Source of the DNA: Gemmatimonadota bacterium | GTDB lineage: Bacteria > Gemmatimonadota > Gemmatimonadetes > Longimicrobiales > Gaopeijiaceae | Length of the DNA: 36,772 nt | Direction of reading: 5' to 3' | Assembly (NCBI GenBank): GCA_028873845.1 | Contig: JAPPNO010000001.1 | Span: 10,211 to 46,982, forward strand | Shown: piece after piece, positions 10,969 to 30,442 of the stretch | How positions within the stretch are numbered: the stretch's first letter is position 1 | Layout of the letters: every line of letters begins with the position of its first letter | Program-made: the position numbers and the translations under genes | The notes under the pieces: model-generated | What the model was told of the DNA's origin: nothing | Databases searched by the model: none | What the model saw: the letters and a program-made list of their open reading frames with translations, nothing else

Positions 10969-13900
10969 TCACCGCCGCCAAGCCGCGCCGGACGGAATCC
11001 CACGGCTGAAAAGCACGTCGAGACCGTCGGCTTGAGGGGCAAGGGCTGCCCCGGCTTCGGCTTGTGGCAGGTCGCGCAAGATGGCGCGCACCTTTCCGCT
11101 TCGGGGGTCGCGCAGGATGGCCATGGGTCGGTCGCTATTCCCGTCGAGCGTCACGGACCCCTCGGGCCCCTCAAGCGTGATGCTGGAGAGGGCACCCTCC
11201 CACCCCGGCCGCACGGGGAGCACGAAGGCGAACGACGAGCCGCCGTCGGCGTCGGCAATCGCCGACACGGCGAAGCCGAGGGAGAAGAGTTCGCCGCCGC
11301 TGGCGGCGCGACCGGTGAGGCGGTGCTGGCCCGTGGAGTCCGGCAGCGTGGGCGGGGCGTCAACCACGAAGGCGGGTTCAAGATACGGTACGCCGCCCGC
11401 ATTCACCCCGCCCCAAACGAGGAGCGACCTGGCGGCGACGGCGGGCGGTGGCAGACCCTCTTTGGACAGCCGATAGCCGAGTGCATTGGTGAAATGGTAG
11501 TCGCTGATCCACCTCGGTCCGCAATACCCCATCAGGTCTGGTCTGCCCGGGGGCACTAGTCGGCCACTGTCGCGGAAGTCGTAGCCCCATGCTCCGATGG
11601 ATCCGCCAGGATAGGGGTACGACGGGTCCGGGCCGCCTGCGCCCCCGCAGGGCGCATGGCCCAAGCCCATGTTGTGCCCGAGTTCGTGAGCCATTAGTTC
11701 CGCGCCTGGTAACGCAAAGCTCCACCAGTCTCCCCCCGCCACTCCGCTCGGCCCCGTGATGGATCCCGACATCATGCCCATGTAGTGGCCGGTTCCGCCT
11801 TCAATCGCGCGGATCGCCCTAATTTGGTCGAGCAATACATATCCGTTGTTGCTTGAGCTCATCACGGGCTCGTGAGCTGTCACCTCAAGATCGCGGACCG
11901 GCAGTAAGATGCGGGTGGATTCAAGCAGCTCGTGGCCCTCCGGGTCTGCCGCCATCCCTGCCGTCAGCGCCAGGATGGCCGAGTCCGGGTTGGCGGTCCA
12001 GAGGAAGGGAATCGCGGTGAGATTGAAGATCGGCATCTCCCGCACATCCACTGCTTGGCGTCCTGCCTCCGGGATCCGTCGCGCCACGCCCAGCCCGGCG
12101 TCCAGCGTCCCCTCCGGGTCGATCTCGATCACCAACTCGAGGCCGGGGCGCACGATCCCGCCCGGGATCTCCGCGTTGGCGGACTTCGAAAGACTGCCCT
12201 CGTCCACCTCGGAGGGGATCGGCGTGGTCGTGCCCGGGATCTCCACCGCATACGTCTCCCGGCCGTCGACGTAGAAGCGGGCCCGGACCGGCGGAATGCC
12301 GTCACCGGTGGCACGCCCGGTCGTCGGGAACACGCGCAGCAACGCCTTCTCGCCCGCCACCAGTGGGACCGGAAACTCCCGCGACTGCACTGCTTGGGTA
12401 AGGTACGCCATGGACGCGCCGGCACAGGCGGCGATCCGCCGCCGGTTGCGCACGGTCTCCAGCCAGGCCAGAAAGCCCGGATCGGAGGGGACACACAGCC
12501 CCGTGCCTCCGGCCATCAGCTCTTCGAGCTGGCTAAGGGCAGTCAGTTCGGTCGGAAGGCTCCCCGCCATGCTGAAGTTGTTCGTCAGGTTGAGTTGCCG
12601 GAGACTCGACATTCTCCCCAGCTCGGGCGGGATAGCGCCGGTCAGGTCGTTGTTTTCGAGCCACAGGGTGCGAAGGCTGACGAGATTGCCCAGCTCGGGC
12701 GGGATAGCGCCGGTCAGGTCGTTGCCGTACAGGAGCAGGGTAGTCAGGCCGGCGAGGTTGCCCAGCTCGGGTGGAATCGAGCCGGTCAAGGCGTTGTCGG
12801 GCAGCCAAAGGGTCCGGAGGTTGGCGAGGTTGGCCAGCTCGGATGGGATCGCGCCGGTCAAGGCGTTGCCGCGGAGCCGCAGATCCCTCAGGCTGGCGAG
12901 GCTACCCAGTTCCGGCGGAATCGAGCCGGTCAGGTCGTTGAAGCGGAGGTCCAGCATCCCCAGGTTGGCGAGGTTGCCCAGCTCGGACGGGATAGCGCCG
13001 GTCAGGTCATTGAAGTCGAGGTGCAGGGTCCGCAGGCTGGCGAGGTTGCCCAGCTCGGACGGGATAGCGCCGGTCAACGTGTTGTAGTTGAGCCACAGGG
13101 ACCTCAAGCTGGCGAGGTTGCCCAGCTCAGGCGGGATCGGGCCGGTCAGCACGTTGTCGGGGAGCCACAGGGACCTCAAGCTGGCGAGGTTGCCCAGCTG
13201 CGCCGGGATCGCGCCGGTCAACGCGTTGTCGTCGAGGTACAGGTACGCCAGGCTGGCGAGGTTGCCGAGTTCCGCCGGGATCGGGCCGGCCAGACCCTGG
13301 GACATCCATCGTCTCGCCTCGTTGTCCCACGACTGTCTGAGAACAATACTTACGACCCGCCCAGATGCGTCCGTATCGACCCCGTGCCACTCGCCGAGCG
13401 GCACGTCCTCCAGCCAGTTCTCATTGTGGGTCCAGTTCGGACCGTCCGTCGCGTCGTACAGTGCAACCAGCGCCGCCCGGTCTGGGTTGTCCACGACCGT
13501 AATCTGCGCCGTTCCCTGTGCGCTCCCCACACTTGCGGCGATTGTCGCCATGCCCTTGGCAACTCCGCGCACCAATCCCCGAGCATTTACCGTGGCCACT
13601 GCTCTGTCGCTGGACGCCCACGAGAACTCCGCAGTCAACAACATGTGCCCGTTCACATCGAACGCCTCCGCCAACATCTGCTTGGTGTTACCCAGACTGA
13701 TGTTCTCTGCAGCCGGCGACACGAAAACCGAGTCGGCTAACTGCATCACCGTCACGACCCCCGTTCCAACGGCTTCAGATCTTTCGTTGACGCTGGCAGC
13801 GATCACCGCCGTTCCGTCCCCCGCCGCTGTGACCAGACCGGTCCGGTCCACTGTCGCCACTGACGCACTGCTACTCGCCCACGCCACGGCGGTCCCAGCC

Positions 13901-14106
13901 ATCACTCTCCCGTTCTGGTCACGTACCTCTGCGTTCAGCTGTATGCTCGCCCCCAACGCCGTCAACTCGGCTGTGGCCGGGTTCACCTCAACTGTAGTCG
14001 GACGAGGCGGGTTGGATGCCGGCGCGGTGGCGGTGGCACTGTCTCCGCACGCCGACACCAAGGAGACACCCGCGAGCACTGCCACCATGGCTCCGTACCC
14101 ACTCAT
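10969..14106 (-). CDS. Ig-like / plant-type LRR lipoprotein with metzincin protease domain
   Basis: A multidomain lipoprotein of about 1045 residues. The lipobox is VSAC (C20). Two bacterial Ig-like (Big_2) domains cover about 35-120 and 125-205, each with the [10 protein letters not shown]-type strand. An LRR cap motif ([12 protein letters not shown]) leads into about ten 24-residue plant-type leucine-rich repeats (LTGxIPxELGNLxxL) from about 272 to 535. The C-terminal half holds a zinc protease: [11 protein letters not shown] gives H807, E808, H811 and H817, and MGYC near M859 is the Met-turn, together defining a metzincin. The protein is probably surface-anchored, with LRRs for binding and the protease for cleaving a target. 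The ATG at 14106 has GAGAG in front; a GTG at 14118 is an alternative start. Confidence 0.88.
12550..13295 (-). repeat. 72-bp tandem repeats encoding LRRs (protease-bearing copy)
   Basis: About ten near-identical 72-bp units lie end to end within the LRR-protease gene. They are visible as recurrent GAGGTTGCCCAGCTC and GCGCCGGTCA cores. Each encodes one 24-residue leucine-rich repeat. Identity is high enough for recombination or slippage to change copy number, and also to confuse short-read assembly, so the exact repeat count should be treated with care. Confidence 0.8.
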
Positions 14107-14276
14107 GGCATCTCTCACGAATTCAACAATCCTATACGTGCGCTGACATGCTGCCGCTCTACCGCCTGTACTGACAATAAACGGCTACACTGCCGGCACC
14201 ATGGTCGGCCTGCAACAGTGTGTTGACCTTTGTCTGTACACGGTATGGTACACGTCACCATAACCGATGCTAGCGG

Positions 14277-16376
14277 TCATCTGCCACGATACGTTCGTCG
14301 TGGTCCCTGTAGCGGTACGGGTCGAATTGACGTTGAAGAAGATGTAGTACAGAACGGCCCGGATACATCTCGAATACGCTGAAGCCAAGTGCGAAAAGTC
14401 GCAGTATCTGGTGCACAGAGGCCAGCGTTATGCTGGAAATAAAATCCACTCAAGTTGTTCAGTTCTAGAAAACTAGGGGGGATCAAACCCGAAAGGCCAT
14501 TGTGGTTGAGACGCAGCCGTAGCAGGCCGGTGAGGTTGCCGAGTTCGGGAGGGACTGAGCCCGAAAGGTCGTTCTCGTCTAGATCAAGCCGTAACAGACC
14601 CGTGAGGTTACCGAATTCCGCCGGGATTGGACCTGTCAGTTCGTTGCCGCCGAGAAACAAATCTTCCAGGCTGGCTAGGTTGGCGAGTTCCCTCGGGATC
14701 GGACCCGTCAATTCGTTGCCGCTGAGACTCAACCACGTCAAGCTCGACAGGTTGCCAAGATCAGGCGGGATGGGGCCCGTCAATTCGTTGCCGTTCAACG
14801 TCAAGTGCGTGAGGCCGGTCAAACTACCGAGTACGGACGGAATCGAGCCGGAAAGGCTGTTGTTGCCGAGCCACAATCTCTCCAAGCCAATGAGGTCGGC
14901 GAGCTCCGGCGGAATCAAGCCCGTCAATTCGTTGCCGTTGAGACTCAGCCACGTTAAGCTCGACAGGTTACCGAGTTCGGGAGGGACGGGGCCGGAAAGG
15001 TTATTTCTACCGAGCCACAGATTCTCCAAGCCAATGAGGTCGGCGAGTTCCGGTGGAATCAAGCCCGTCAGTTCGTTGCCGTTGAGAGTCAGCCACGTCA
15101 ACTTCGACAGGCTGCCGAGCTCCGGCGGGATGGGGCCGGAAAGGCTGTTGTTTCCGAGAGACAAACTCTCCAAGCCAACGAGGTCGGCGAGCTCCGGCGG
15201 GATGTGACCCGTCAGTTCGTTGCTGTTCAAATCCAAGCTCTTGAGGTGGGTCAGACTGGAGAGCTCCGGCGGAATCGGGCCGACAAGGTTGTTGCCCCCG
15301 AGAATCAAGTATTCCAGGCTGGCTAGGTTGGCGAGTTCAGGCGGGATCGGGCCGGTCAGTTCGTTGCCGAAGAGATACAACCTCTCAAGGCTGGCTAGCT
15401 TGCGGAGTTCAAATGGGATCGGGCCCGAAAGGTTGTTTTGGGTAAAAACCAACTCAAGTAGTGTAGCTAGGTTGCCGAGCTCGGGGGGGATGACCCCCGT
15501 CAAGTTGTTGAACCCGAGTCTCAGCAATTCTAGGCGCGCTAGGGTGCCGAGCTCGGGGGGGATCGAACCCGAAAGGTTGTTGTTGTAGAGATCCAGGCGG
15601 ACGACTCGGCCGGAAGCACCCGTGTCCACCCCGTACCAGTCTCCTGTCGGGGCATCGGTCAGCCAGCCGTCTGCGTTGGCCCAGTTCCGTCCGTCCGTCG
15701 CGTCGTAGAGTGCCTCGAGTGCTGACCGGTCTCGAGCAGCGAGAACCACGGCGTCCACTACTGTGACCTCTGCCGTCGCCTGTCTGCTACCTGCTCTTGC
15801 CGTGATCGTGGCCACTCCACTATCTGCCCCCGTCACTAGACCCGACGCATCCACTGCCGCCACCGAGGTGTCGCTGGATTCCCAAGAGAACTCTGTACCC
15901 GCGAGCACATGGTCGTTCTCGTCTAACGCCTCTGCTGACAACTGCAATGTTTCACCGGATCCGATAGTCCCTTCGGTCGGCGATACCGTCACCGACTCAA
16001 CCGTTTGGGTCACGGTGATCCCTGCGCTCCCCGTTGCAGAACCCGCACTCGCAGTGATCGCCGCCGACCCTATGCTCACCGCCGTTACCAGACCCAACTG
16101 ATCCACCGCCGCCACCGAGGTGTTGCTACTACTCCACATTACGGTGGCCGTGGGCATTACGTCGGTATTCTGGTCACGCACCTCCGCCGTCAGCTGTACG
16201 GTCGCACCCAACGCCGTCAGCTCGGTGGCGAATGGGCTCACCGTGATCGTCGTTGGACGAAGTGGATCCGGCGCTGGCTCCGGTGCTGTGAAGCTGTCGC
16301 CGTCCCCGCACGCCGTGGCCAACGCCACGGCCGATAGCACCACCAATAGCCGAATGAAAGTTCGGTGGCGACTCAT
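14277..16376 (-). CDS. Ig-like / plant-type LRR lipoprotein without protease domain
   Basis: A 699-residue paralogue of the neighbouring LRR-protease gene. It has the same architecture through the LRR block: a lipobox (ATAC, C23), two Big_2-like Ig domains (about 40-210), the [11 protein letters not shown] cap, then about sixteen 24-residue plant-type LRRs from about 265 to 650. A short cysteine-bearing cap follows (GLCAPDTATF, then PFC), equivalent to [10 protein letters not shown] in the paralogue. Where the paralogue continues into its zinc protease, this protein stops after about 25 low-complexity residues. The ATG at 16376 follows GAGGAGG closely; one at 16388 is an alternative. It is probably a surface binding protein or a truncated relative. 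The 170 bp between the two genes show no protease remnant. Confidence 0.85.
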   Translation of the reverse strand: MSRHRTFIRLLVVLSAVALATACGDGDSFTAPEPAPDPLRPTTITVSPFATELTALGATVQLTAEVRDQNTDVMPTATVMWSSSNTSVAAVDQLGLVTAVSIGSAAITASAGSATGSAGITVTQTVESVTVSPTEGTIGSGETLQLSAEALDENDHVLAGTEFSWESSDTSVAAVDASGLVTGADSGVATITARAGSRQATAEVTVVDAVVLAARDRSALEALYDATDGRNWANADGWLTDAPTGDWYGVDTGASGRVVRLDLYNNNLSGSIPPELGTLARLELLRLGFNNLTGVIPPELGNLATLLELVFTQNNLSGPIPFELRKLASLERLYLFGNELTGPIPPELANLASLEYLILGGNNLVGPIPPELSSLTHLKSLDLNSNELTGHIPPELADLVGLESLSLGNNSLSGPIPPELGSLSKLTWLTLNGNELTGLIPPELADLIGLENLWLGRNNLSGPVPPELGNLSSLTWLSLNGNELTGLIPPELADLIGLERLWLGNNSLSGSIPSVLGSLTGLTHLTLNGNELTGPIPPDLGNLSSLTWLSLSGNELTGPIPRELANLASLEDLFLGGNELTGPIPAEFGNLTGLLRLDLDENDLSGSVPPELGNLTGLLRLRLNHNGLSGLIPPSFLELNNLSGFYFQHNAGLCAPDTATFRTWLQRIRDVSGPFCTTSSSTSIRPVPLQGPRRTYRGR
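14455..15590 (-). repeat. LRR-encoding repeats with a 144-bp higher-order unit
   Basis: About sixteen 72-bp units encode LRRs. Within roughly 14750-15240 they alternate between an LSG type and an LTG type, forming a 48-residue (144-bp) super-unit repeated about three times. For example, the GAGGTCGGCGAG core recurs at about 14893, 15037 and 15181, exactly 144 bp apart. This points to recent duplication of a two-repeat block by unequal recombination. Confidence 0.8.
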
Positions 16377-17406
16377 CTGCCTCCTCATTGAGCCGAACTT
16401 GGAGTGTGATCCGCGACTAATACCACACTAAGCATGGTAGTGGACCTAACCCGCTTTCACGGACGGTCAATTCTTGGGATTGATGGTGTCCGGTGTGGTT
16501 TGTTCTCTCCCCTTTCCCCCGCGTCTCGACGGGCTACAGACTCGGCAACTCGCTCGACTTCGGCCTCGTTTCTGGCGATGCCGGTAGCCGTCGGATCGAG
16601 CTTGCCCTCGAAGCGACTAATATCGTCTGCTCCTACGACTCCCTGATCCTCCTTCAACGCTTCGATGAGCGAGGCCGCTGGATTCTCGGGAGTTGCCCAT
16701 TTCCGTCAAGAGCGAGTCGGGTCGCTCCGTGGGGCCGCATATTATACCCGTAACCTGTCTAGAGCAAGAATCCCATTGCGAATTGTGAGCGATTTGGGTT
16801 TTCATATACCCTGTAGTGTGTCTCTGAAGCAGCAGTGTATGGTGTCACCATGCCCATGTGACCTGCTATTGTGTGTGTACCGTGACCATTTTTACCGAGG
16901 GAGGGTAGACGGTAGCTTGGGTGGTTGTAGATTGAAGCCTTGTCGAACGAGATGTGAGCTGCGAGTCCACCGAATCCTAGCCGGGGGGCTCCCAGGGACC
17001 CCCGGGACCGCTACACAACGTTCGCCGCGTAGGTCGACCCCGGTCTCTTCCCGATGCAAGAGCGTGCAGGGGCAGCAAGGACGCACAAGCACCTGTGTTC
17101 GTCGCCGTCATCGCTGCCAGAGTTCGGCTCGCCACCTCGATCTCCGACCGGCCCGAACATTCCTACGACGCTCGGGATCGGCCCCTAACCGGAGCCCGTC
17201 GCCACTCAGGGCCCGTGTCCAACCCGATCCCCCCACACCATGGCATCCGGCGCGCCGATCCCAGCACACAACCGAAAGACCCCGAAAAGGCGCTCTTGAC
17301 CGGTCCTACCATCGACCACGCACACCATCGGGGTACCGTGGCCACCACCCGACATCCGAGCCCCCAGCAGCACTTCCCTGCAAGCACCTGTGTCGCTACT
17401 CACTTC
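16377..17406. other. Region of about 1 kb without a recognisable gene
   Basis: The segment is visibly richer in A and T than its surroundings in parts (16740-16930). Only short open frames are present, none with a family I recognise. A 66-codon minus-strand frame at 16457-16657 reads somewhat protein-like but needs a TTG start. A G/C hairpin (GGGGGCTCCCAGGGACCCCC, about 16983-17002) is present. I interpret the stretch as decayed or transferred DNA between the LRR genes and the hicB-like fragment. Confidence 0.45.
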
Positions 17407-23439: not shown

Positions 23440-24747
23440 GTGTTCCTGACCCTCGAAGACCCGCGGGCCCGCGTGAAGGGTTCCCGCGATCCGCTCGGCC
23501 TTCAGCCGGTCTGGTCGGGGTTCGGACGGCACATCATCGTGAACCTCACCACGGTCACCGACTCACTCCGCGGCTTCACGGTGCTCCTTCTCGGGAGGTA
23601 CTTCGGGGAGCGGCTCCTCAGGGAAGGAAGGATCGAGGAGGAAGAGATCGTCGACGTCTTCCTCCGGGTCGAGCAGGCATGCGCGTATGCACGCTGCCTC
23701 GCCCGGAGGAACAACGGACCGGGGCCGGGCCGCATTCTCGGGATCGAGCGGGTCAGACGGCGCATCTCCGGGCGATCCGGCTTGGTGCGGATCGGCGTCG
23801 ATCCGGGTGCCACGATTCTGGCCGACCAGAAGACCTACGGCCTCTGGGGTCTCTTCTCGGTGTCGGCGAGAGTCTCGAAGCTGCTCCCCAATGGACCGGT
23901 CGGCCTCGGTCCGGAGGCCGCCAAGTTCGTCGAGGGCCACTATCTGCCGCACCTGACCCCGGTGTTCGAGCGCCTTCAGCGCCTGGTCGCGCGGGGGGGC
24001 GAACTCAAGTTGAATCCCCGGTCCCCGGTCCTGACCGCGCTGGGACGCGTTCTCGGTGGACAGCTGTCGGCGGCCGAAAGACGGTTCTACCGCACCTACC
24101 TCTGCGACGGCGAATACTGCGACCACCGTGTGGGGGGGCGGCAGGCGACGTTCCGCCGGCAGCTGGAATCGCACTCCAAACTTGGTGACCCCATCAACCG
24201 CGACGAGCTCGTTTCAATCCGGAGGGCCGTCCTGACCTCCGACCCGGAACTCGCGAGGCACATCGACCGGATCCTCGCGCTGGAGGCCCTCCTCGCGCCG
24301 AGCGAGGTGACCTTCGGATTCCTCCAGACGCGCCACGGCCAAGACCCCGCCGATGTGGCAGCAACGCTCCGCGAGCGCTGGGGGGAAAGCATGCGTCATC
24401 TGGACCCGGACGGGTTTGCAGCCATCCGCGACGAGATCGCCAGGCTGGCGGGTGAGGACATCACGAAGTGTATGGCGGGGGTGCACGAGGCGCTCCTCGT
24501 CGGCGACTACGAGGCGGCGATCCGGCATCTGCTGGGTTGGAACCGGTTCGTCATGACGAACCGCTCCGCCGGCCCGTGGGTGCGGCTGGATGACGGCGAC
24601 GCGCTCGATGTGCGCTACCGCGGCATCGAACGGGAGCTGCCGACGGGGGCGGCGATGCCGTCGCTCTGGCGCAACTCGTACTTCGTCAACGCGCTCAAGG
24701 CGCTGGCGGCCCAGACCGCGGAGACATCAACCGGAGGGGATCCGTGA
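23440..24747 (+). CDS. Unknown 435-residue protein, first gene of the PLD-helicase operon
   Basis: The protein begins at a GTG and carries strongly conserved-looking N-terminal features: RVKGSRDPLGLQPVWSGFGR, then VNLTTVTDSLRGFTVLLLGRY (about 12-54). It continues as a largely helical, Arg/Glu-rich protein. A CDGEYCDH segment near 227-234 could bind metal, but only two cysteines and one histidine are close together. I do not recognise the family and see no nuclease, ATPase or methyltransferase motif. Its stop overlaps the start of the PLD gene as GTGA (24744-24747), so the two are translationally coupled. It may be the sensor or scaffold of the system; that is inferred only from its position. 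Confidence 0.85.
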   Translation: MFLTLEDPRARVKGSRDPLGLQPVWSGFGRHIIVNLTTVTDSLRGFTVLLLGRYFGERLLREGRIEEEEIVDVFLRVEQACAYARCLARRNNGPGPGRILGIERVRRRISGRSGLVRIGVDPGATILADQKTYGLWGLFSVSARVSKLLPNGPVGLGPEAAKFVEGHYLPHLTPVFERLQRLVARGGELKLNPRSPVLTALGRVLGGQLSAAERRFYRTYLCDGEYCDHRVGGRQATFRRQLESHSKLGDPINRDELVSIRRAVLTSDPELARHIDRILALEALLAPSEVTFGFLQTRHGQDPADVAATLRERWGESMRHLDPDGFAAIRDEIARLAGEDITKCMAGVHEALLVGDYEAAIRHLLGWNRFVMTNRSAGPWVRLDDGDALDVRYRGIERELPTGAAMPSLWRNSYFVNALKALAAQTAETSTGGDP

Positions 24748-26825
24748 GCGTTCCCGGACGGGTCCTTTCGGACGAGGTCTCCGGGTCGATCCGCGGTCGC
24801 CGGGTCCTCGCCGCCGTCTTCACCACCTACACATTCGACCCGGCGTTCTTCGAGCTGGAGATTCTCCCGCTCCTGTTCGAGAGCCGGATCAGGGGCGGCT
24901 TCAGCCACATTGAGAAGGTGCGCCGCGTCCAGCTTGAAGAGTGCCTGCGCGACACGGCCGAGATCGAAGTGTTCTACGACCGGAGCGGGCTCGTCGGAAA
25001 CGCGGGGCCCGCGTCTCTGGACTTCCGCCGAATCGATGTCGGCCGGAAGACCGGTGTCTTCCATCCCAAGCTGGTGCTCGTGCTGGTAGAGAATCCGCCG
25101 ACGGACGGCGGTGAGCCAACCCGGAGCCTGATCGTGGCGACGCTCTCAGCCAACCTCACGCGCTCGGGATGGTGGGAGAACGTAGAGGCAGGTCACATCG
25201 AGGTGGTCGACTCCGAGTCACCCAAGAACCGGCGGTGCACGTTCCGCCAAGATCTCCTCGAGACGCTCAGCCTTGTCTCGGACGCGGCTCGCCCCGGGGA
25301 AAGGCACGGCGCGCTCGAAACGATACGCAGATTCGTCCGGGAGAAAGCCCCCCGGGGCGACACGCGGAACGCAAGCTGGCGGGGACGCTACTACACGCGC
25401 CTATTCGCGGGCCAAGTGCCCCTCTCTGAATGGCTCCGAGCCCGGCGGCTCGCCGGCCGCAACTGGAACCTGGAGGTCGTGTCGCCGTTTTTCGACGCCC
25501 ACGGCCCACGGGCGCTGGAGCGCCTGATCCGGACGATGCGACCGAGGGAGGTGCGCGTCCTCCTCCCGACCGAAGCGGACGGGACCCCCTGCGTGACTGG
25601 GGAGCAGTACGAAGCGATCGCGGTGCTCGCCAGGTGGAGCCGCCTCCCGCCAGCCGTCACCGGTTCGTCCGGGGGAGCGTCGACCGAAAGGGCCGTCTCC
25701 CGCCGGGTGCACGCCAAGCTCTACCGCTTCTGGCGCCGTGGCGAGGGAGACGTGTCGCTGGTCGGCTCCCCCAACGCGACCGGGGCCGCCCACAGCCGGG
25801 ACAATGCCGGGAACCTCGAAGCGGCGTTCCTGGCCAACACCGGCGGCGGCGGGAGCGAGCGCGCCGGGTGGTTGCTCCAGCCGCTCGATGACCCTCCCAG
25901 GCGATTTCCGGAGGAGCCGTCGAGTGAAGAGGGAGACGCCGAACGGGTGGGGCTCGCTCTCTCACTCCGGTACGACTGGGAGCGGCAGGCTTTCGAGTAC
26001 AGGCTGGACGAAGAGCAGGGCTTCGAGGGGGAAGTGCGGATCCGGGAGCTCAGCGGGAGAGAGGTTCACGCGATCGATTACCCGGGGCGGGGCGAGTGGA
26101 GGGACTGCGGCACTGGGGCCGCCGGCCGGGTGAAGGAGCTGCTCGCTTCCACGAGCCTCGTGGAAGCCCGGATCCGGACCCCGGCGGGGACGTGCCGGTG
26201 GCGTGTACTCATCCGGGAAGAGGGAATGACCCACAAGCCCTCCCTTCTCACGCAGCTCACCCCCGACGAGATTCTCCGGTACTGGTCACTCCTCTCCGAG
26301 TCGCAGCGCCAGGCCTTCCTCGCTGATCGGCTGGAGACCGACGAAGCCATCCTGGCACTCGATCCGAACCGGGAACCGCGGCCCCCAGAACGCATCCCGA
26401 CCGTATTCGACCGCTTCGCCGGCGTTTTCCACGCATTCGAGCGGCTTGGCAGCTGGGTGGACGAAAAGCTCCGGCAGGATCGGAAGGCCGAGGTGACGGC
26501 CCGCCTGTTCGGCGAGAAGTACGACTCCCTCCCGGTGCTCCTCCGGAAGATCCCCGATCGAGAGGACCGGGACGAGATCATCGCGTACGTGACCTTCTTG
26601 AGCGCCAAGCAGGCCGTCCGACGGATCAGGGAGAGATGGTCGGCCTACTGGTCCGAGCGCGGCAAAGACACCCGCAGGCTGGAATGCGAACTGGAGAAGA
26701 TCGCGGGAATCCGAGAGAGGCTCCCGCTCCCGGACCCGGACCGCGAGGAGTTCCTGACCTGGTACGAGGGCGCGTTCATGACCGTCGCGCCCGAGCTGCA
26801 GGGAGGGGATGACCGCATCCGATGA
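24744..26825 (+). CDS. PLD-family nuclease, two HxK motifs
   Basis: A 693-residue protein with two phospholipase-D-type half-sites. The first is FHPKL (H107, K109) followed by SANLT (N137) and E148. The second is VHAKLYRFW (H323, K325) followed by GSPNATG (N344) and E359. The HxK...N...E pattern is that of PLD-superfamily nucleases; the Asp of the classical HxKxxxxD motif is missing in both halves, as I recall for nuclease-type members. The C-terminal 300 residues are charged and helical with no known domain and may contact the helicase. It is coupled on both sides, by GTGA with the preceding gene and ATGA (26822-26825) with the helicase gene. Predicted role: the DNA-cleaving subunit. Confidence 0.85.
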   Translation: MSVPGRVLSDEVSGSIRGRRVLAAVFTTYTFDPAFFELEILPLLFESRIRGGFSHIEKVRRVQLEECLRDTAEIEVFYDRSGLVGNAGPASLDFRRIDVGRKTGVFHPKLVLVLVENPPTDGGEPTRSLIVATLSANLTRSGWWENVEAGHIEVVDSESPKNRRCTFRQDLLETLSLVSDAARPGERHGALETIRRFVREKAPRGDTRNASWRGRYYTRLFAGQVPLSEWLRARRLAGRNWNLEVVSPFFDAHGPRALERLIRTMRPREVRVLLPTEADGTPCVTGEQYEAIAVLARWSRLPPAVTGSSGGASTERAVSRRVHAKLYRFWRRGEGDVSLVGSPNATGAAHSRDNAGNLEAAFLANTGGGGSERAGWLLQPLDDPPRRFPEEPSSEEGDAERVGLALSLRYDWERQAFEYRLDEEQGFEGEVRIRELSGREVHAIDYPGRGEWRDCGTGAAGRVKELLASTSLVEARIRTPAGTCRWRVLIREEGMTHKPSLLTQLTPDEILRYWSLLSESQRQAFLADRLETDEAILALDPNREPRPPERIPTVFDRFAGVFHAFERLGSWVDEKLRQDRKAEVTARLFGEKYDSLPVLLRKIPDREDRDEIIAYVTFLSAKQAVRRIRERWSAYWSERGKDTRRLECELEKIAGIRERLPLPDPDREEFLTWYEGAFMTVAPELQGGDDRIR

Positions 26826-29800
26826 AGCGGATCCACATGGACCTCGCACGCGAGTTCATCGACTTCAGCGGCGCCGGCGGGACGGGGACGGGAGCGCGCC
26901 GCCGCGGCATCACCTCATCGTTTGCGGAATCGCAGCTTCGCGGGACCGTCGCCGCATACAACATGCTCACCCGCAACCGGGTGGCCTACATCGCCGACGA
27001 GGTCGGGATGGGAAAGACCTACCTGGCGCTCGGCGTCATGGGGCTCATGCGGCATTTCCGTCCCGGAGCCCGAATGCTCGTCATCGCTCCCAGGGCCAAT
27101 ATCCAGATGAAGTGGGTGAAGGAACTTGGCAATTTCGTCCGCAACAACTGGCAGGTGACCGACAACCGCGTGAAGTCGGTCCAGGGCGACCCGGCAAGAA
27201 AGCCCACGGTATGCCACTCGCTCACTGAATTCGCGCGCGAGCTCAACGTCAATGCCGACCGCGACTTCTTCCTCCGGATGACGAGCTTCAGCCTCGCGCT
27301 CAAGCGACGGGAGGCGCGGGACAGGTACCGCAAGCAGCTCCGGCGCCACGTGGGCTGGCTGCCCCGGTCGGTCCTCTCCTCGGAAACCGTGCAGGGTTTC
27401 CGCGAGGGGTACGGATCCGCCCTGAACGCGCTCCTGCCCGACATCGACCTCCTAGTAGTCGACGAGGCTCACAATCTGCGGAAGGGCTTCGGTACTGAGG
27501 ACAGGAGACACACCTCGAACCGAAACCGCATCATGGGGCTCACGCTCGGGCACCCTTCGCTGGCGGGTCGTGGCACCCCGTGGTACCGGCCACGCGTCAG
27601 GCGTGTCCTCTGCCTCTCGGCCACTCCGTTCGAGGACGACTACGGCGATCTTTGGCGCCAGCTGGACGTGCTCGGCCACGGCGGCGCGCAGCTCGGCGAC
27701 GCATGCGGGGGGCGGGCCGTCCCGGTGCAAATCCTAGCTGACACCAGCACGGACGATGAAACCAAGCGGGAGGCGGCCTCCAACCTGCTTATTCGCCGGG
27801 TCACTCACCTGACGATCGGCGGAGAAGAGCACACCAAGAACATGTACCGCCGCGAATGGCGGTACGGCGGCTTCCGGAGCTTCGACGATCCCATCCGCTT
27901 CGAGGATCCACGCCAACGGCTCATCGTCGGCCTGGTTCAGAAGAAGGTGGCCGAAGTGCTGGGCGATGAGCGGTTCGGGAATCACTTCCAGATCGGCATG
28001 CTCTCCTCTTTCGAGAGCTTCCTCCAGACAGTCGGACACATCCGGGCCAAGGAGCGTGCGGCCGAGGTGGAGACGGACGGCGAAGGGGACGAGGTCACCT
28101 TCGACGGCCGACAGACCCGGAACCGGGCGGAACAACGCGGTGCTGACACGCGCGTGCTGAACGCCCTGATCGAATCGTACGAGGATCGCTTCCAGCAGGG
28201 GATGCCACACCCCAAGCTCGACACAGCGGTCCAGTCGCTGGCTTCCGCGTTTGAAACGGGGGAGAAGGCCCTTGTCTTCGTCCGGCGCGTTGCAACGGTG
28301 GCCGAGCTGGCCCGGCGCCTCGACCGCGAGTTCAACTCGTGGGTCCGGCGGAAAATGAAGGCTGCACTCCCCGGGCTCGGCGACGAGATCGAGGAGCTGT
28401 TCGAGCGCTTCACGAGCGAGACGGGAGCCGGCGAGGATCCGGGAGCGGGCGCTTCCGGCCCGAGCGCAGGGACTCGACCGAAGGGAGAGCTCCTGTCCGC
28501 CGTCGGGGATGACCCGGGCGGGCGCGAGAACTTCTTCTCCTGGTTCTTCCGTGGGGAGGGACCGAACAACGTCCAATCGGGGGCCGCATTCCAGAAAAAC
28601 CGCCTCAGCAACACTGCAGCGGTCTACAGCACACTCTTCGAGGACGACCTCGTCGCTTGGCTCCTCGGTCGGCCCAATCGGCCACTCGTACGCCTGGGGG
28701 AGAAGCTCGCACTTTCCCTGCAAGTGCTGGAAGCACAGCTCCGTGAGCTGGCCTGGGCCTACTTCCGCAAGCGCACCGGGCGAACTGCAGGATACCCCCG
28801 CTACTATGTGTTCGAGGCCTATCAGTCGGCCGCCCTCCATCTCCTAGCGGAGGCCGGCGGCGCGGTGGGGGACCAAGCGGGCCAGGTGCTCAGGGGCCGG
28901 TTCCCCGACCATCACGGGGAACGCTCCGAGCCCCCGGGCGGCTTTCCGGCGCCAGAGTCGGCAATCGGCATCACGACCTTCTTCACCGAGCTCGTCAAGC
29001 GTCCCGGGCTCCGGGAGGCGATCTGGCCGGACGAAGAGGAGACGTCGTTTCCCAGGCGCTTCAGGCGCCGGGAAGAGCGGCGCGAACTGCTGAGCGCGAT
29101 GTCACGGCTCGGTGCGGCATACATCGACCTCTATCTCCTTGCTATCCGGGAGGCCGGATCCTTCGAGATGGGGCCAGCGACGGGGAGCGACGCAACCGAC
29201 CGGGACTTGGCACGGAGGTTTGTCGAGCTTCTCGCCGAGCAGCAGCGCCAACCCGGCTTTCACGCCTTCGCGGAACTGAACGGCGCCTCGGATGCCTTCG
29301 ATACGCTGATCGCGGTCAACTTTCCCAACGTGTCGCGGAGTGGACTGACCGGCCTGGCCGAGATCTTCGGCCGCGGGCTGCAGCAACAGAATCCTGTCGG
29401 CCGCATGTCGGGAAGGGTAGCGGGTCGGATCGTCCGGCAGTTCCGCATGCCTGGCTTCCCCCTCTTCCTCATCAGCACCGACATCCTGCAAGAGGGTGAG
29501 GACCTGCACACGTTCTGTCGCAGCGTCATTCACTACGGCATCACGTGGACGCCCTCCGCGATGGAACAGCGGACCGGGAGGGTGGACCGGATTGACAGCC
29601 TTCTCCAGCGGAAACTCGACGGGAGGGAGAGATTACCGGACCCGGAGGAGAAGATCCAGGTCCACTACCCCCACCTAGAAGATACCGTTGAGCGGCTCCA
29701 GGTCAGGCGGGTTCTTCGACGGCTGGATCGGTTTCATCGGCTCGTCCATGAGCCGATGAAACGAAAGGCGCATGAGCGTCGCATCGACAAGAACCGGGAA

Positions 29801-30442
29801 ATCCTGGCTTCGACGGAGCTTCCGCCCCCCGTTGAAGGGCGTCTGAAGTCAGCGTTTCCGGTGCGGGACGAATGGCTGGAAGGAGCGGTCGCAACCACCG
29901 GTCCGCACGGGATCGATGTCCAGGCACTGGCAAGGCTACTCAAGGAATTCTGGGAGCGGCTGGCCAGGGAACTCGGGATCGAGCGCTCAGGGGTGCCGTC
30001 GTCGCTCCGTCGCGACGGCGTGGTGCGCGTGAGCGCGGGCGTCGGTGCGACAGGACCACCCGACGGCCGAGCGCACGGCGAGGGTCGGCGGCAACTTGTC
30101 CGTACGGAGTTGCGCTCGGCCGGAATTGACGGCGTGACCTTCCTACGCTGCAGCAGCGAAATCGGCCTCGTCGACCTGTCGGACGGGAGGACGGTCGACC
30201 GGTTGCGGTGCTTGGTGCTGCGGCTTGGTCAACCACGCTTGTGCGCGCACTACCAGACCCGGCACCGCAAGTACCAGCTCAGCGTGGATGCCAGTGTGCC
30301 CTTCGAACCCGCCACGACGCAGTACGAGGAGGTTCAGGAGCTGGTCACGCGCGTCGCACGACAGGCCGACCGGCTGGAGCATGAACTTCTCGGCGTGGAC
30401 GCGGAGCCCACCGAACAGATCGGGAGGCCTGACCGTGCGTGA
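26822..30442 (+). CDS. SNF2-like superfamily 2 helicase, 1206 residues
   Basis: A large ATPase of the SNF2-like helicase type. Motifs in order: Walker A in DEVGMGKTY (G-K65-T66), motif II DEAH (D214-H217), motif III LSATPFE (S266-P269), and in the C-terminal lobe STDILQEGEDL (about 885) and motif VI EQRTGRVDR (Q916, R920, R923). A long insertion of roughly 600 residues separates the two lobes; it is highly charged and of unknown fold. About 250 residues follow motif VI. The DEVGxGKT and QEGxDL signatures resemble helicases of phage-defence systems such as DISARM. It probably translocates on DNA and hands substrate to the PLD nuclease. ATG overlaps the previous stop; its own stop overlaps the next gene. 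Confidence 0.92.
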   Translation: MKRIHMDLAREFIDFSGAGGTGTGARRRGITSSFAESQLRGTVAAYNMLTRNRVAYIADEVGMGKTYLALGVMGLMRHFRPGARMLVIAPRANIQMKWVKELGNFVRNNWQVTDNRVKSVQGDPARKPTVCHSLTEFARELNVNADRDFFLRMTSFSLALKRREARDRYRKQLRRHVGWLPRSVLSSETVQGFREGYGSALNALLPDIDLLVVDEAHNLRKGFGTEDRRHTSNRNRIMGLTLGHPSLAGRGTPWYRPRVRRVLCLSATPFEDDYGDLWRQLDVLGHGGAQLGDACGGRAVPVQILADTSTDDETKREAASNLLIRRVTHLTIGGEEHTKNMYRREWRYGGFRSFDDPIRFEDPRQRLIVGLVQKKVAEVLGDERFGNHFQIGMLSSFESFLQTVGHIRAKERAAEVETDGEGDEVTFDGRQTRNRAEQRGADTRVLNALIESYEDRFQQGMPHPKLDTAVQSLASAFETGEKALVFVRRVATVAELARRLDREFNSWVRRKMKAALPGLGDEIEELFERFTSETGAGEDPGAGASGPSAGTRPKGELLSAVGDDPGGRENFFSWFFRGEGPNNVQSGAAFQKNRLSNTAAVYSTLFEDDLVAWLLGRPNRPLVRLGEKLALSLQVLEAQLRELAWAYFRKRTGRTAGYPRYYVFEAYQSAALHLLAEAGGAVGDQAGQVLRGRFPDHHGERSEPPGGFPAPESAIGITTFFTELVKRPGLREAIWPDEEETSFPRRFRRREERRELLSAMSRLGAAYIDLYLLAIREAGSFEMGPATGSDATDRDLARRFVELLAEQQRQPGFHAFAELNGASDAFDTLIAVNFPNVSRSGLTGLAEIFGRGLQQQNPVGRMSGRVAGRIVRQFRMPGFPLFLISTDILQEGEDLHTFCRSVIHYGITWTPSAMEQRTGRVDRIDSLLQRKLDGRERLPDPEEKIQVHYPHLEDTVERLQVRRVLRRLDRFHRLVHEPMKRKAHERRIDKNREILASTELPPPVEGRLKSAFPVRDEWLEGAVATTGPHGIDVQALARLLKEFWERLARELGIERSGVPSSLRRDGVVRVSAGVGATGPPDGRAHGEGRRQLVRTELRSAGIDGVTFLRCSSEIGLVDLSDGRTVDRLRCLVLRLGQPRLCAHYQTRHRKYQLSVDASVPFEPATTQYEEVQELVTRVARQADRLEHELLGVDAEPTEQIGRPDRA

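What the first reader, a model, noticed from the sequence alone, without database searches (positions are those of the whole stretch)
10969..14106. Surface lipoprotein joining Ig-like domains, plant-type LRRs and a metzincin protease
The order Big_2-Big_2-LRR-metzincin on a lipid anchor is unusual. Plant-type LRRs resemble eukaryotic receptor repeats, and the protease has a full HExxHxxGxxH site plus Met-turn. It could be a host-interaction or predatory factor in which the LRRs choose the target to be cut.
Basis: partly seen in the sequence, partly recalled or inferred. Interest (0 to 1): 0.6.

Follow-up and report, generated by a model that had tools for sequence, protein, structure and literature searches.

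The report
Repeat-guided surface protease family in sponge symbionts
This gene encodes a membrane-anchored protein that joins a recognition surface to a protein-cutting enzyme, and it is one of about two dozen copies in this genome of a family that so far turns up only in bacteria living in marine sponges, which suggests it acts on the sponge or its other inhabitants.

Summary
Window 10969-14118 (-) encodes a 1049-aa predicted lipoprotein: lipobox, two Big_2 domains, about 11 plant-type LRRs with caps, and a metzincin with [11 protein letters not shown] and a Met-turn. The protease is M66-like: it passes the Pfam cut-off, and the AlphaFold model (pLDDT 91) resembles archaemetzincin, ADAMs and StcE.

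The gene is not a singleton. The 4.05 Mb genome holds 24 near-full-length copies of the protease domain (about 1.8% of the DNA), and every one of 22 same-genus species carries 8-39. LRR-free single or few copies are widespread in the class. The LRR fusion is confined to eight of 138 sampled Gemmatimonadota genera, and also occurs in a few Acidobacteriota, most of the phylum of one Latescibacterota genome and one gammaproteobacterial genome. Named carriers come, where checked, from sponge metagenomes. Non-Gemmatimonadota copies nest inside the Gemmatimonadota tree five times, indicating transfer between phyla.

The protease domain is under purifying selection, as are two conserved clades that lost the active site. 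LRR surface residues vary most but show no proven positive selection.

Best reading: a surface-displayed repertoire of LRR-targeted proteases acting in the sponge environment; substrate unknown. The parts are known; the fusion, its expansion and its spread appear unreported.

The parts
10969..14118 (-). Whole coding sequence, 1049 aa, LRR-metzincin lipoprotein (ATG alternative at 14106)
14047..14118 (-). Signal peptide and lipobox, V-S-A-C at residues 21-24
   Evidence: sequence inspection; homologous start in the upstream paralogue
13744..13998 (-). Big_2 Ig-like domain 1 (about residues 41-125)
   Evidence: Pfam Big_2, two stretches; boundary approximate
13495..13731 (-). Big_2 Ig-like domain 2 (residues 130-208)
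   Evidence: Pfam Big_2
13333..13485 (-). LRR N-terminal cap ([17 protein letters not shown]...W.GV)
   Evidence: conserved in paralogues
12499..13332 (-). About 11 plant-type 24-residue leucine-rich repeats
   Evidence: Pfam LRR_1/LRR_14; AF2 pLDDT above about 92 over most of the array; repeat profile
12424..12498 (-). LRR C-terminal cap with two conserved Cys ([14 protein letters not shown]...C)
   Evidence: invariant columns C542, W552 and C565 in A2
12040..12408 (-). Beta-rich domain before the protease
   Evidence: AF2 model; StcE alignment begins here
11449..12039 (-). Metzincin catalytic domain, M66-like
   Evidence: Pfam M66; VIA Z up to 14.5 over model residues 122-319
11656..11688 (-). 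Zinc-binding motif [11 protein letters not shown] (residues 811-821)
11521..11538 (-). Met-turn DLMGYC (residues 861-866)
   Evidence: Met in 115 of 116 family members
11074..11436 (-). C-terminal beta-sandwich domain
   Evidence: AF2 model
14277..16388 (-). Paralogue directly upstream: lipobox, two Big_2 and LRRs with caps, no protease
   Evidence: Pfam; 49% identity over 594 columns

Best explanation
The protein is one member of a large, modular family of lipid-anchored surface proteins in sponge-symbiotic bacteria. Each has an Ig-like stalk that raises an LRR recognition array, followed in most copies by an M66-like zinc endopeptidase. The most likely mechanism is targeted proteolysis at the cell surface: the LRR array binds an extracellular protein or glycoprotein in the sponge mesohyl, holding it next to the protease, which cuts it. 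Having many copies with different LRR faces gives the cell a repertoire of specificities. Copies with a dead protease, or none, would act as binders or adhesins. Shown: architecture, conserved catalytic residues, fold, expansion, spread between phyla, purifying selection. Inferred: outer-surface display, LRR-guided targeting, a host (or co-resident) substrate.
For: Architecture and fold. 24 near-full-length protease domains in the own genome and 8-39 matches in each of 22 same-genus species, against 0-2 in other genera of the first relatives sample; also 11 and 18 copies in two single-contig genomes (G001, G021), so this is not a binning artefact. LRR-free single or few copies elsewhere. All 62 loci found among 84,980 species genomes carry MAG titles from sets that are sponge sets where the source could be checked. 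Non-Gemmatimonadota copies nest in five places in the tree and the acidobacterial ones are 61-62% identical to the window protease although RpoB is only about 50% identical. Protease dN/dS 0.15-0.40. LRR variability peaks at strand positions 6, 8 and 10, which face the concave surface. PMC8163846 reports LRR and other eukaryote-like repeats enriched and laterally transferred in sponge symbionts, with few secretion systems and an unknown mode of contact; a lipid-anchored form would solve that.
Against: No substrate, ligand or localisation data. Exposed convex LRR positions evolve as fast as concave ones, so receptor-like positive selection is not demonstrated. The relative placement of LRR and protease in the full-length model is not reliable (pTM 0.50). 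Eight of 116 members lack catalytic residues, so proteolysis is not required in all. The signal peptide has a weakly charged n-region. Genome handles carry no habitat labels, so 'free-living' for the LRR-free relatives is presumed.
Confidence: 0.5

Rival explanations
1. Nutritional: a battery of surface endopeptidases that digest dissolved and matrix protein of the mesohyl for food, with the LRRs serving only as general adhesive or spacer modules.
For: LRR-free versions of the same protease exist in the same genome and in relatives outside the expanded lineages, so the ancestral role was probably generic extracellular proteolysis; many copies could simply raise dosage.
Against: Dosage does not explain diverse LRR arrays, conserved protease-dead clades, or an LRR-only paralogue.
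Confidence: 0.25
2. Adhesin or surface-variation family: the LRRs provide attachment or host recognition, or shield the cell from sponge phagocytes or phages; proteolysis is secondary or used for shedding.
For: Conserved dead copies under purifying selection (dN/dS 0.30 and 0.36); LRR-only copies; exposed LRR positions evolve faster than the protease; eukaryote-like repeat proteins of sponge symbionts affect phagocytosis when expressed in E. coli (PMC8163846).
Against: 108 of 116 members keep all zinc ligands and the catalytic Glu, and the protease is the most conserved part of the protein.
Confidence: 0.15
3. The targets are other microbes or predators in the sponge (competition or predation defence) rather than the host.
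For: Mesohyl communities are dense, and inter-phylum sharing would also fit microbe-microbe interaction.
Against: No toxin-immunity layout, secretion genes or lytic domains were seen at the window locus. Nothing specific favours it.
Confidence: 0.07
4. Housekeeping protein of the phylum with a dispensable LRR insertion.
For: An LRR-free M66-like protease is found once to a few times per genome in many Gemmatimonadota.
Against: The fusion is restricted to eight genera and massively expanded in several of them, and the LRR scaffold positions are under strong constraint.
Confidence: 0.03

Closest known systems
Peptidase family M66 (StcE type; Pfam PF10462)
   Same: Pfam M66 above cut-off; HExxHxxGxxH and Met-turn; the model aligns with StcE 3ujz over 327 residues spanning the domains on both sides of the metzincin. 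A Thermus plasmid relative (30% identity) is annotated M66.
   Different: Lipid anchor plus Ig-like and LRR domains; the Gly of the zinc motif is usually S or N; sequence identity to StcE is low and mucinase activity is untested.
Plant-type LRR receptor ectodomains (GSO1, FLS2, PEPR)
   Same: 24-residue LxxLxLxxNxLxGxIPxxLGxL repeats with N-cap W.GV and Cys-bearing C-cap.
   Different: Bacterial, no kinase or transmembrane helix; the output module is a protease.
Listeria internalins and other bacterial LRR adhesins
   Same: Surface LRR plus Ig-like domains in a multigene family (internalin family size from the PMC5397405 abstract; domain layout from general knowledge).
   Different: Plant-type repeats, lipobox instead of the internalin cell-wall anchor, Ig domains before the LRRs, protease fused.
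Eukaryote-like repeat proteins of sponge symbionts (PMC8163846)
   Same: LRR proteins enriched and laterally transferred in sponge symbionts of the same phyla.
   Different: That report counts repeats; its main text has no mention of proteases or peptidases.

Membership tests
Peptidase M66 | Match to Pfam PF10462 above gathering cut-off | tested here: met
   27.4 bits vs 20.6; 22 of 24 own-genome copies match at E <= 0.01
Peptidase M66 | HExxHxxGxxH zinc motif and Met-turn | tested here: met
   [11 protein letters not shown] and DLMGYC in this copy; Gly not kept family-wide (24 of 116)
Peptidase M66 | StcE-like domains flanking the metzincin | tested here: inconclusive
   VIA Z 12.7, 327 residues aligned over 1-438, but rmsd 8.0; StcE not among Foldseek's best 50
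Peptidase M66 | Cleavage of mucin-like O-glycoproteins | not testable with these tools
   needs an enzyme assay
Plant-type LRR proteins | 24-residue repeat with LxGxIP signature | tested here: met
   186 repeats from 24 own-genome proteins; L1, G16 and P19 required by the search pattern, N12 and L14 near-invariant; PDB matches to plant receptors
Bacterial lipoproteins | Signal peptide ending in a lipobox [LVI][ASTVI][GAS]C | tested here: met
   V21-S22-A23-C24 by inspection; an equivalent ATAC in the upstream paralogue. No signal-peptide predictor was available
Bacterial lipoproteins | Lipidation and outer-surface display | not testable with these tools
   needs fractionation and surface labelling
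Listeria-type internalins | Gram-positive cell-wall (LPXTG) or GW anchoring | tested here: not met
   Lipobox at the N-terminus; C-terminus ends in the protease's beta domain with no sorting signal

The most novel reading that the evidence does not exclude
Sponge symbionts of several phyla share, by lateral transfer, a receptor-like system in which tethered plant-type LRR arrays act as an exchangeable specificity module for a surface M66-like protease, with conserved pseudoprotease and LRR-only members. It would be a repertoire-based, injection-free way for bacteria to edit the host's extracellular proteins.
Probability: 0.3. Interest if true: 0.82.

Novelty: new variant of a known kind. Interest (0 to 1): 0.62.

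Why it matters
How eukaryote-like repeat proteins of sponge symbionts reach and affect the host is described as largely unknown, because few of these bacteria have secretion systems (PMC8163846). A family that carries LRRs on a lipid anchor, fused to an enzyme, makes that question directly testable: ligand, substrate and surface display can each be assayed with recombinant ectodomains. Copy number of about two dozen per genome and spread across phyla within one habitat suggest strong selection. It also offers a natural set of LRR-protease pairs for studying how recognition modules direct proteolysis.

Tried and rejected
(1) Positive selection on the concave LRR face: pooled pN/pS at concave positions 6, 8, 10 and 11 is 0.57-0.86, no higher than at other exposed positions (0.53-0.94); one ortholog pair (L134/L135) has concave pN 0.20 against pS 0.03 over 28 codons, too few to carry a claim. 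(2) Phage or plasmid carriage: no viral-contig relative was confirmed and plasmids gave a single Thermus match at 30% identity. (3) Contamination or mis-binning as the cause of high copy number: rejected by single-contig genomes with 11 and 18 copies. (4) 'Gammaproteobacteria RHO2_bin_50' as an extra phylum: its RpoB groups with Gemmatimonadota, so the title is wrong; G304-G309 do fall outside Gemmatimonadota. (5) A first RpoB tree used wrong reading frames for three rows and was replaced. (6) NCBIfam offered only sub-threshold LRR effectors (XopAE, XopAC, XopL) and a Leptospira fibronectin-binding family, all far below cut-off. (7) Literature searches for LRR plus M66 or LRR plus metalloprotease in sponge symbionts found no report of the fusion among the titles and abstracts returned from the held library.

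Full report
OBSERVATION. The minus-strand ORF at 10969-14118 encodes 1049 residues. It starts with a signal peptide and lipobox (VSAC, residues 21-24), then two Big_2 domains, an LRR N-cap, about 11 plant-type LRRs, a Cys-bearing C-cap, a beta-rich domain, a metzincin with [11 protein letters not shown] and the Met-turn DLMGYC, and a C-terminal beta-sandwich. Pfam confirms Big_2, LRR_1/LRR_14 and Peptidase_M66 above their cut-offs. The closest solved LRRs are plant receptor kinases. The AlphaFold2 model of the protease part, built from 24 own-genome paralogues, has pLDDT 91.1 and pTM 0.90. Foldseek's only matches at E <= 0.001 are to the ADAM-8 metalloproteinase. VIA-align gives archaemetzincin Z 14.5, ADAMs and snake-venom enzymes Z 13-14, and StcE Z 12.7 over 327 residues including the flanking domains, though at rmsd 8.0. 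In a full-length model most of the LRR array is confident (pLDDT above about 92 for residues 281-510) but the relative placement of domains is not (pTM 0.50).

A MULTIGENE FAMILY. The window lies in a 4.05 Mb, 137-contig genome (96.5% complete, 1.1% contamination) with 35 places matching the protease part. I recovered 24 near-full-length protease domains plus broken copies (L103, L109). Their open frames total 72.7 kb, about 1.8% of the genome. Architectures vary: Big-like plus protease with no LRR (L079, L105, L108), one LRR block, and several LRR blocks (L095, L106; in L106 separated by further Big-like domains). LRR proteins without this protease also occur, including the gene directly upstream in the window (14277-16388), which is 49% identical over the shared part and stops soon after the LRR cap. 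All 22 same-genus species have 8-39 matches, among them two single-contig genomes with 11 and 18.

DISTRIBUTION. Over 298 Gemmatimonadota genomes, 137 have the protease domain. A query spanning the LRR cap and the protease start separates two groups: fused copies at E <= 1e-48 in genera g1, g18, g64, g16 (one of two genomes), g17, g20, g30 and g40, and weaker, LRR-free type matches at E >= 1e-28 in the rest. Five fetched examples of the weaker group lack LRRs; two of them carry repeated beta-type domains instead (L164, L165). The fusion also occurs in 4 of 297 Acidobacteriota, 12 of 16 genomes of the phylum of the Latescibacterota MAG and 1 of 95 in the order of a sponge gammaproteobacterial MAG. 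RpoB confirms that these genomes are not Gemmatimonadota, while showing that the title 'Gammaproteobacteria RHO2_bin_50' is wrong. Of 62 loci found among 84,980 species genomes, none has an isolate title: 17 SB06xx, 15 RHO, 15 jk18x, 2 p16x, 2 COS4, 1 APA, 2 bin94/bin43 and 8 Sanger-type records. The jk18x MAGs are Caribbean Ircinia symbionts (PMC9531527). RHO, COS4 and SB06xx are, from my own knowledge of the coral-reef demosponge data sets, Rhopaloeides, Coscinoderma and reef-sponge bins, and bin94/bin43 come from Aplysina. The Sanger, APA and p16x sources were not verified.

EVOLUTION. In a FastTree of 132 protease domains, the fused copies form most of one strongly supported clade of 103, while the LRR-free copies from relatives fall outside it; a few fused copies (L095, L102, L106, L175) lie outside as well, so LRRs may have been joined more than once or exchanged. 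Parsimony counts 10 changes of LRR state, 5 of phylum and 3 of active-site loss. Acidobacterial copies are 61-62% identical to the window protease although RpoB is about 50% identical, and one acidobacterial copy (L171) is sister to a Palauibacter denitrificans copy (L026). This is what lateral transfer within a shared habitat would give. The tree is a quick one with local supports only.

SELECTION. Between close homologues dN/dS of the protease is 0.15-0.40. LRR scaffold positions are mostly at 0.03-0.2 and exposed positions at 0.5-0.9. Across 186 repeats the most variable positions are 6, 8 and 10, on the exposed face of the strand. However, concave positions do not evolve faster than other exposed ones, so receptor-like positive selection is not shown.

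PSEUDOPROTEASES. Of 116 distinct members, 8 lack catalytic residues. Two dead groups are conserved across species: HLLGHNFxLGD (own genome, L032, L039, L058) and [QR]QVGHLFNLxS (own genome, L048). Their dN/dS over the protease domain is 0.30 and 0.36, like the active ones. The HLLGHN form lies directly downstream of an active sister in the own genome, L032 and L039; in L058 the upstream sister is truncated. The third ligand replaced by Asp may still permit zinc binding, but the catalytic Glu is gone.

MECHANISM. The most economical account is LRR-targeted proteolysis at the cell surface in the sponge mesohyl, with a repertoire of recognition arrays; copies without activity would act as binders. 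The family, fold, expansion, spread and selection are shown. Surface display, LRR guidance and the nature of the substrate are inferred. Rivals are generic digestion of mesohyl protein, adhesion or surface variation, and action on other microbes.

PRIOR KNOWLEDGE. LRR proteins are known to be enriched and laterally transferred in sponge symbionts, with an unknown mode of contact and few secretion systems (PMC8163846). The Palauibacterales description does not mention peptidases or eukaryotic-like proteins (PMC10469786). Searches for the combination with a metalloprotease or M66 found nothing in the held library. That library is limited, so unreported means not found here. Parts are known; the fused, expanded, cross-phylum family is a new variant.

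Noticed in passing
window 23440-30442 (+): Three genes overlapping by 4 nt match the candidate defence system PDC-M27A/B/C of PADLOC (helicase gene at 26822-30442: 2e-72; two of the genes also resemble ZacB/ZacC). The first two genes have no Pfam match.
   Followed up: partly
L091:13215-15428 (-), own genome C97: Lipobox, Big_2 and LRR protein whose C-terminal part contains a different HELGHAF motif and no Pfam family, suggesting the LRR platform is also joined to a second kind of metallopeptidase-like head.
   Followed up: partly
L094:1610-7028, L032:1523-7461, L039:3288-9213: Conserved tandem pair: an active LRR-protease followed by a dead HLLGHNFxLGD paralogue, in three species.
   Followed up: partly
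L103:3235-6389 and L109:3989-8918, own genome C32 and C71: Family copies broken by stops or frameshifts, either pseudogenes or assembly errors.
   Followed up: no
L082:5202-6737 (-), own genome C47: LRR protein with an N-terminal peptidoglycan-binding domain (PG_binding_1) in place of Big_2.
   Followed up: no
RpoB loci L152-L163: RpoB of the Gemmatimonadota genomes checked is split into two Pfam PF00562 matches, as if by an insertion, unlike the other phyla tested.
   Followed up: no
L134/L135 LRR region (G006, G010): One ortholog pair shows concave LRR codons with pN 0.20 and pS 0.03 while framework and protease are conserved; possible diversification or repeat conversion.
   Followed up: no
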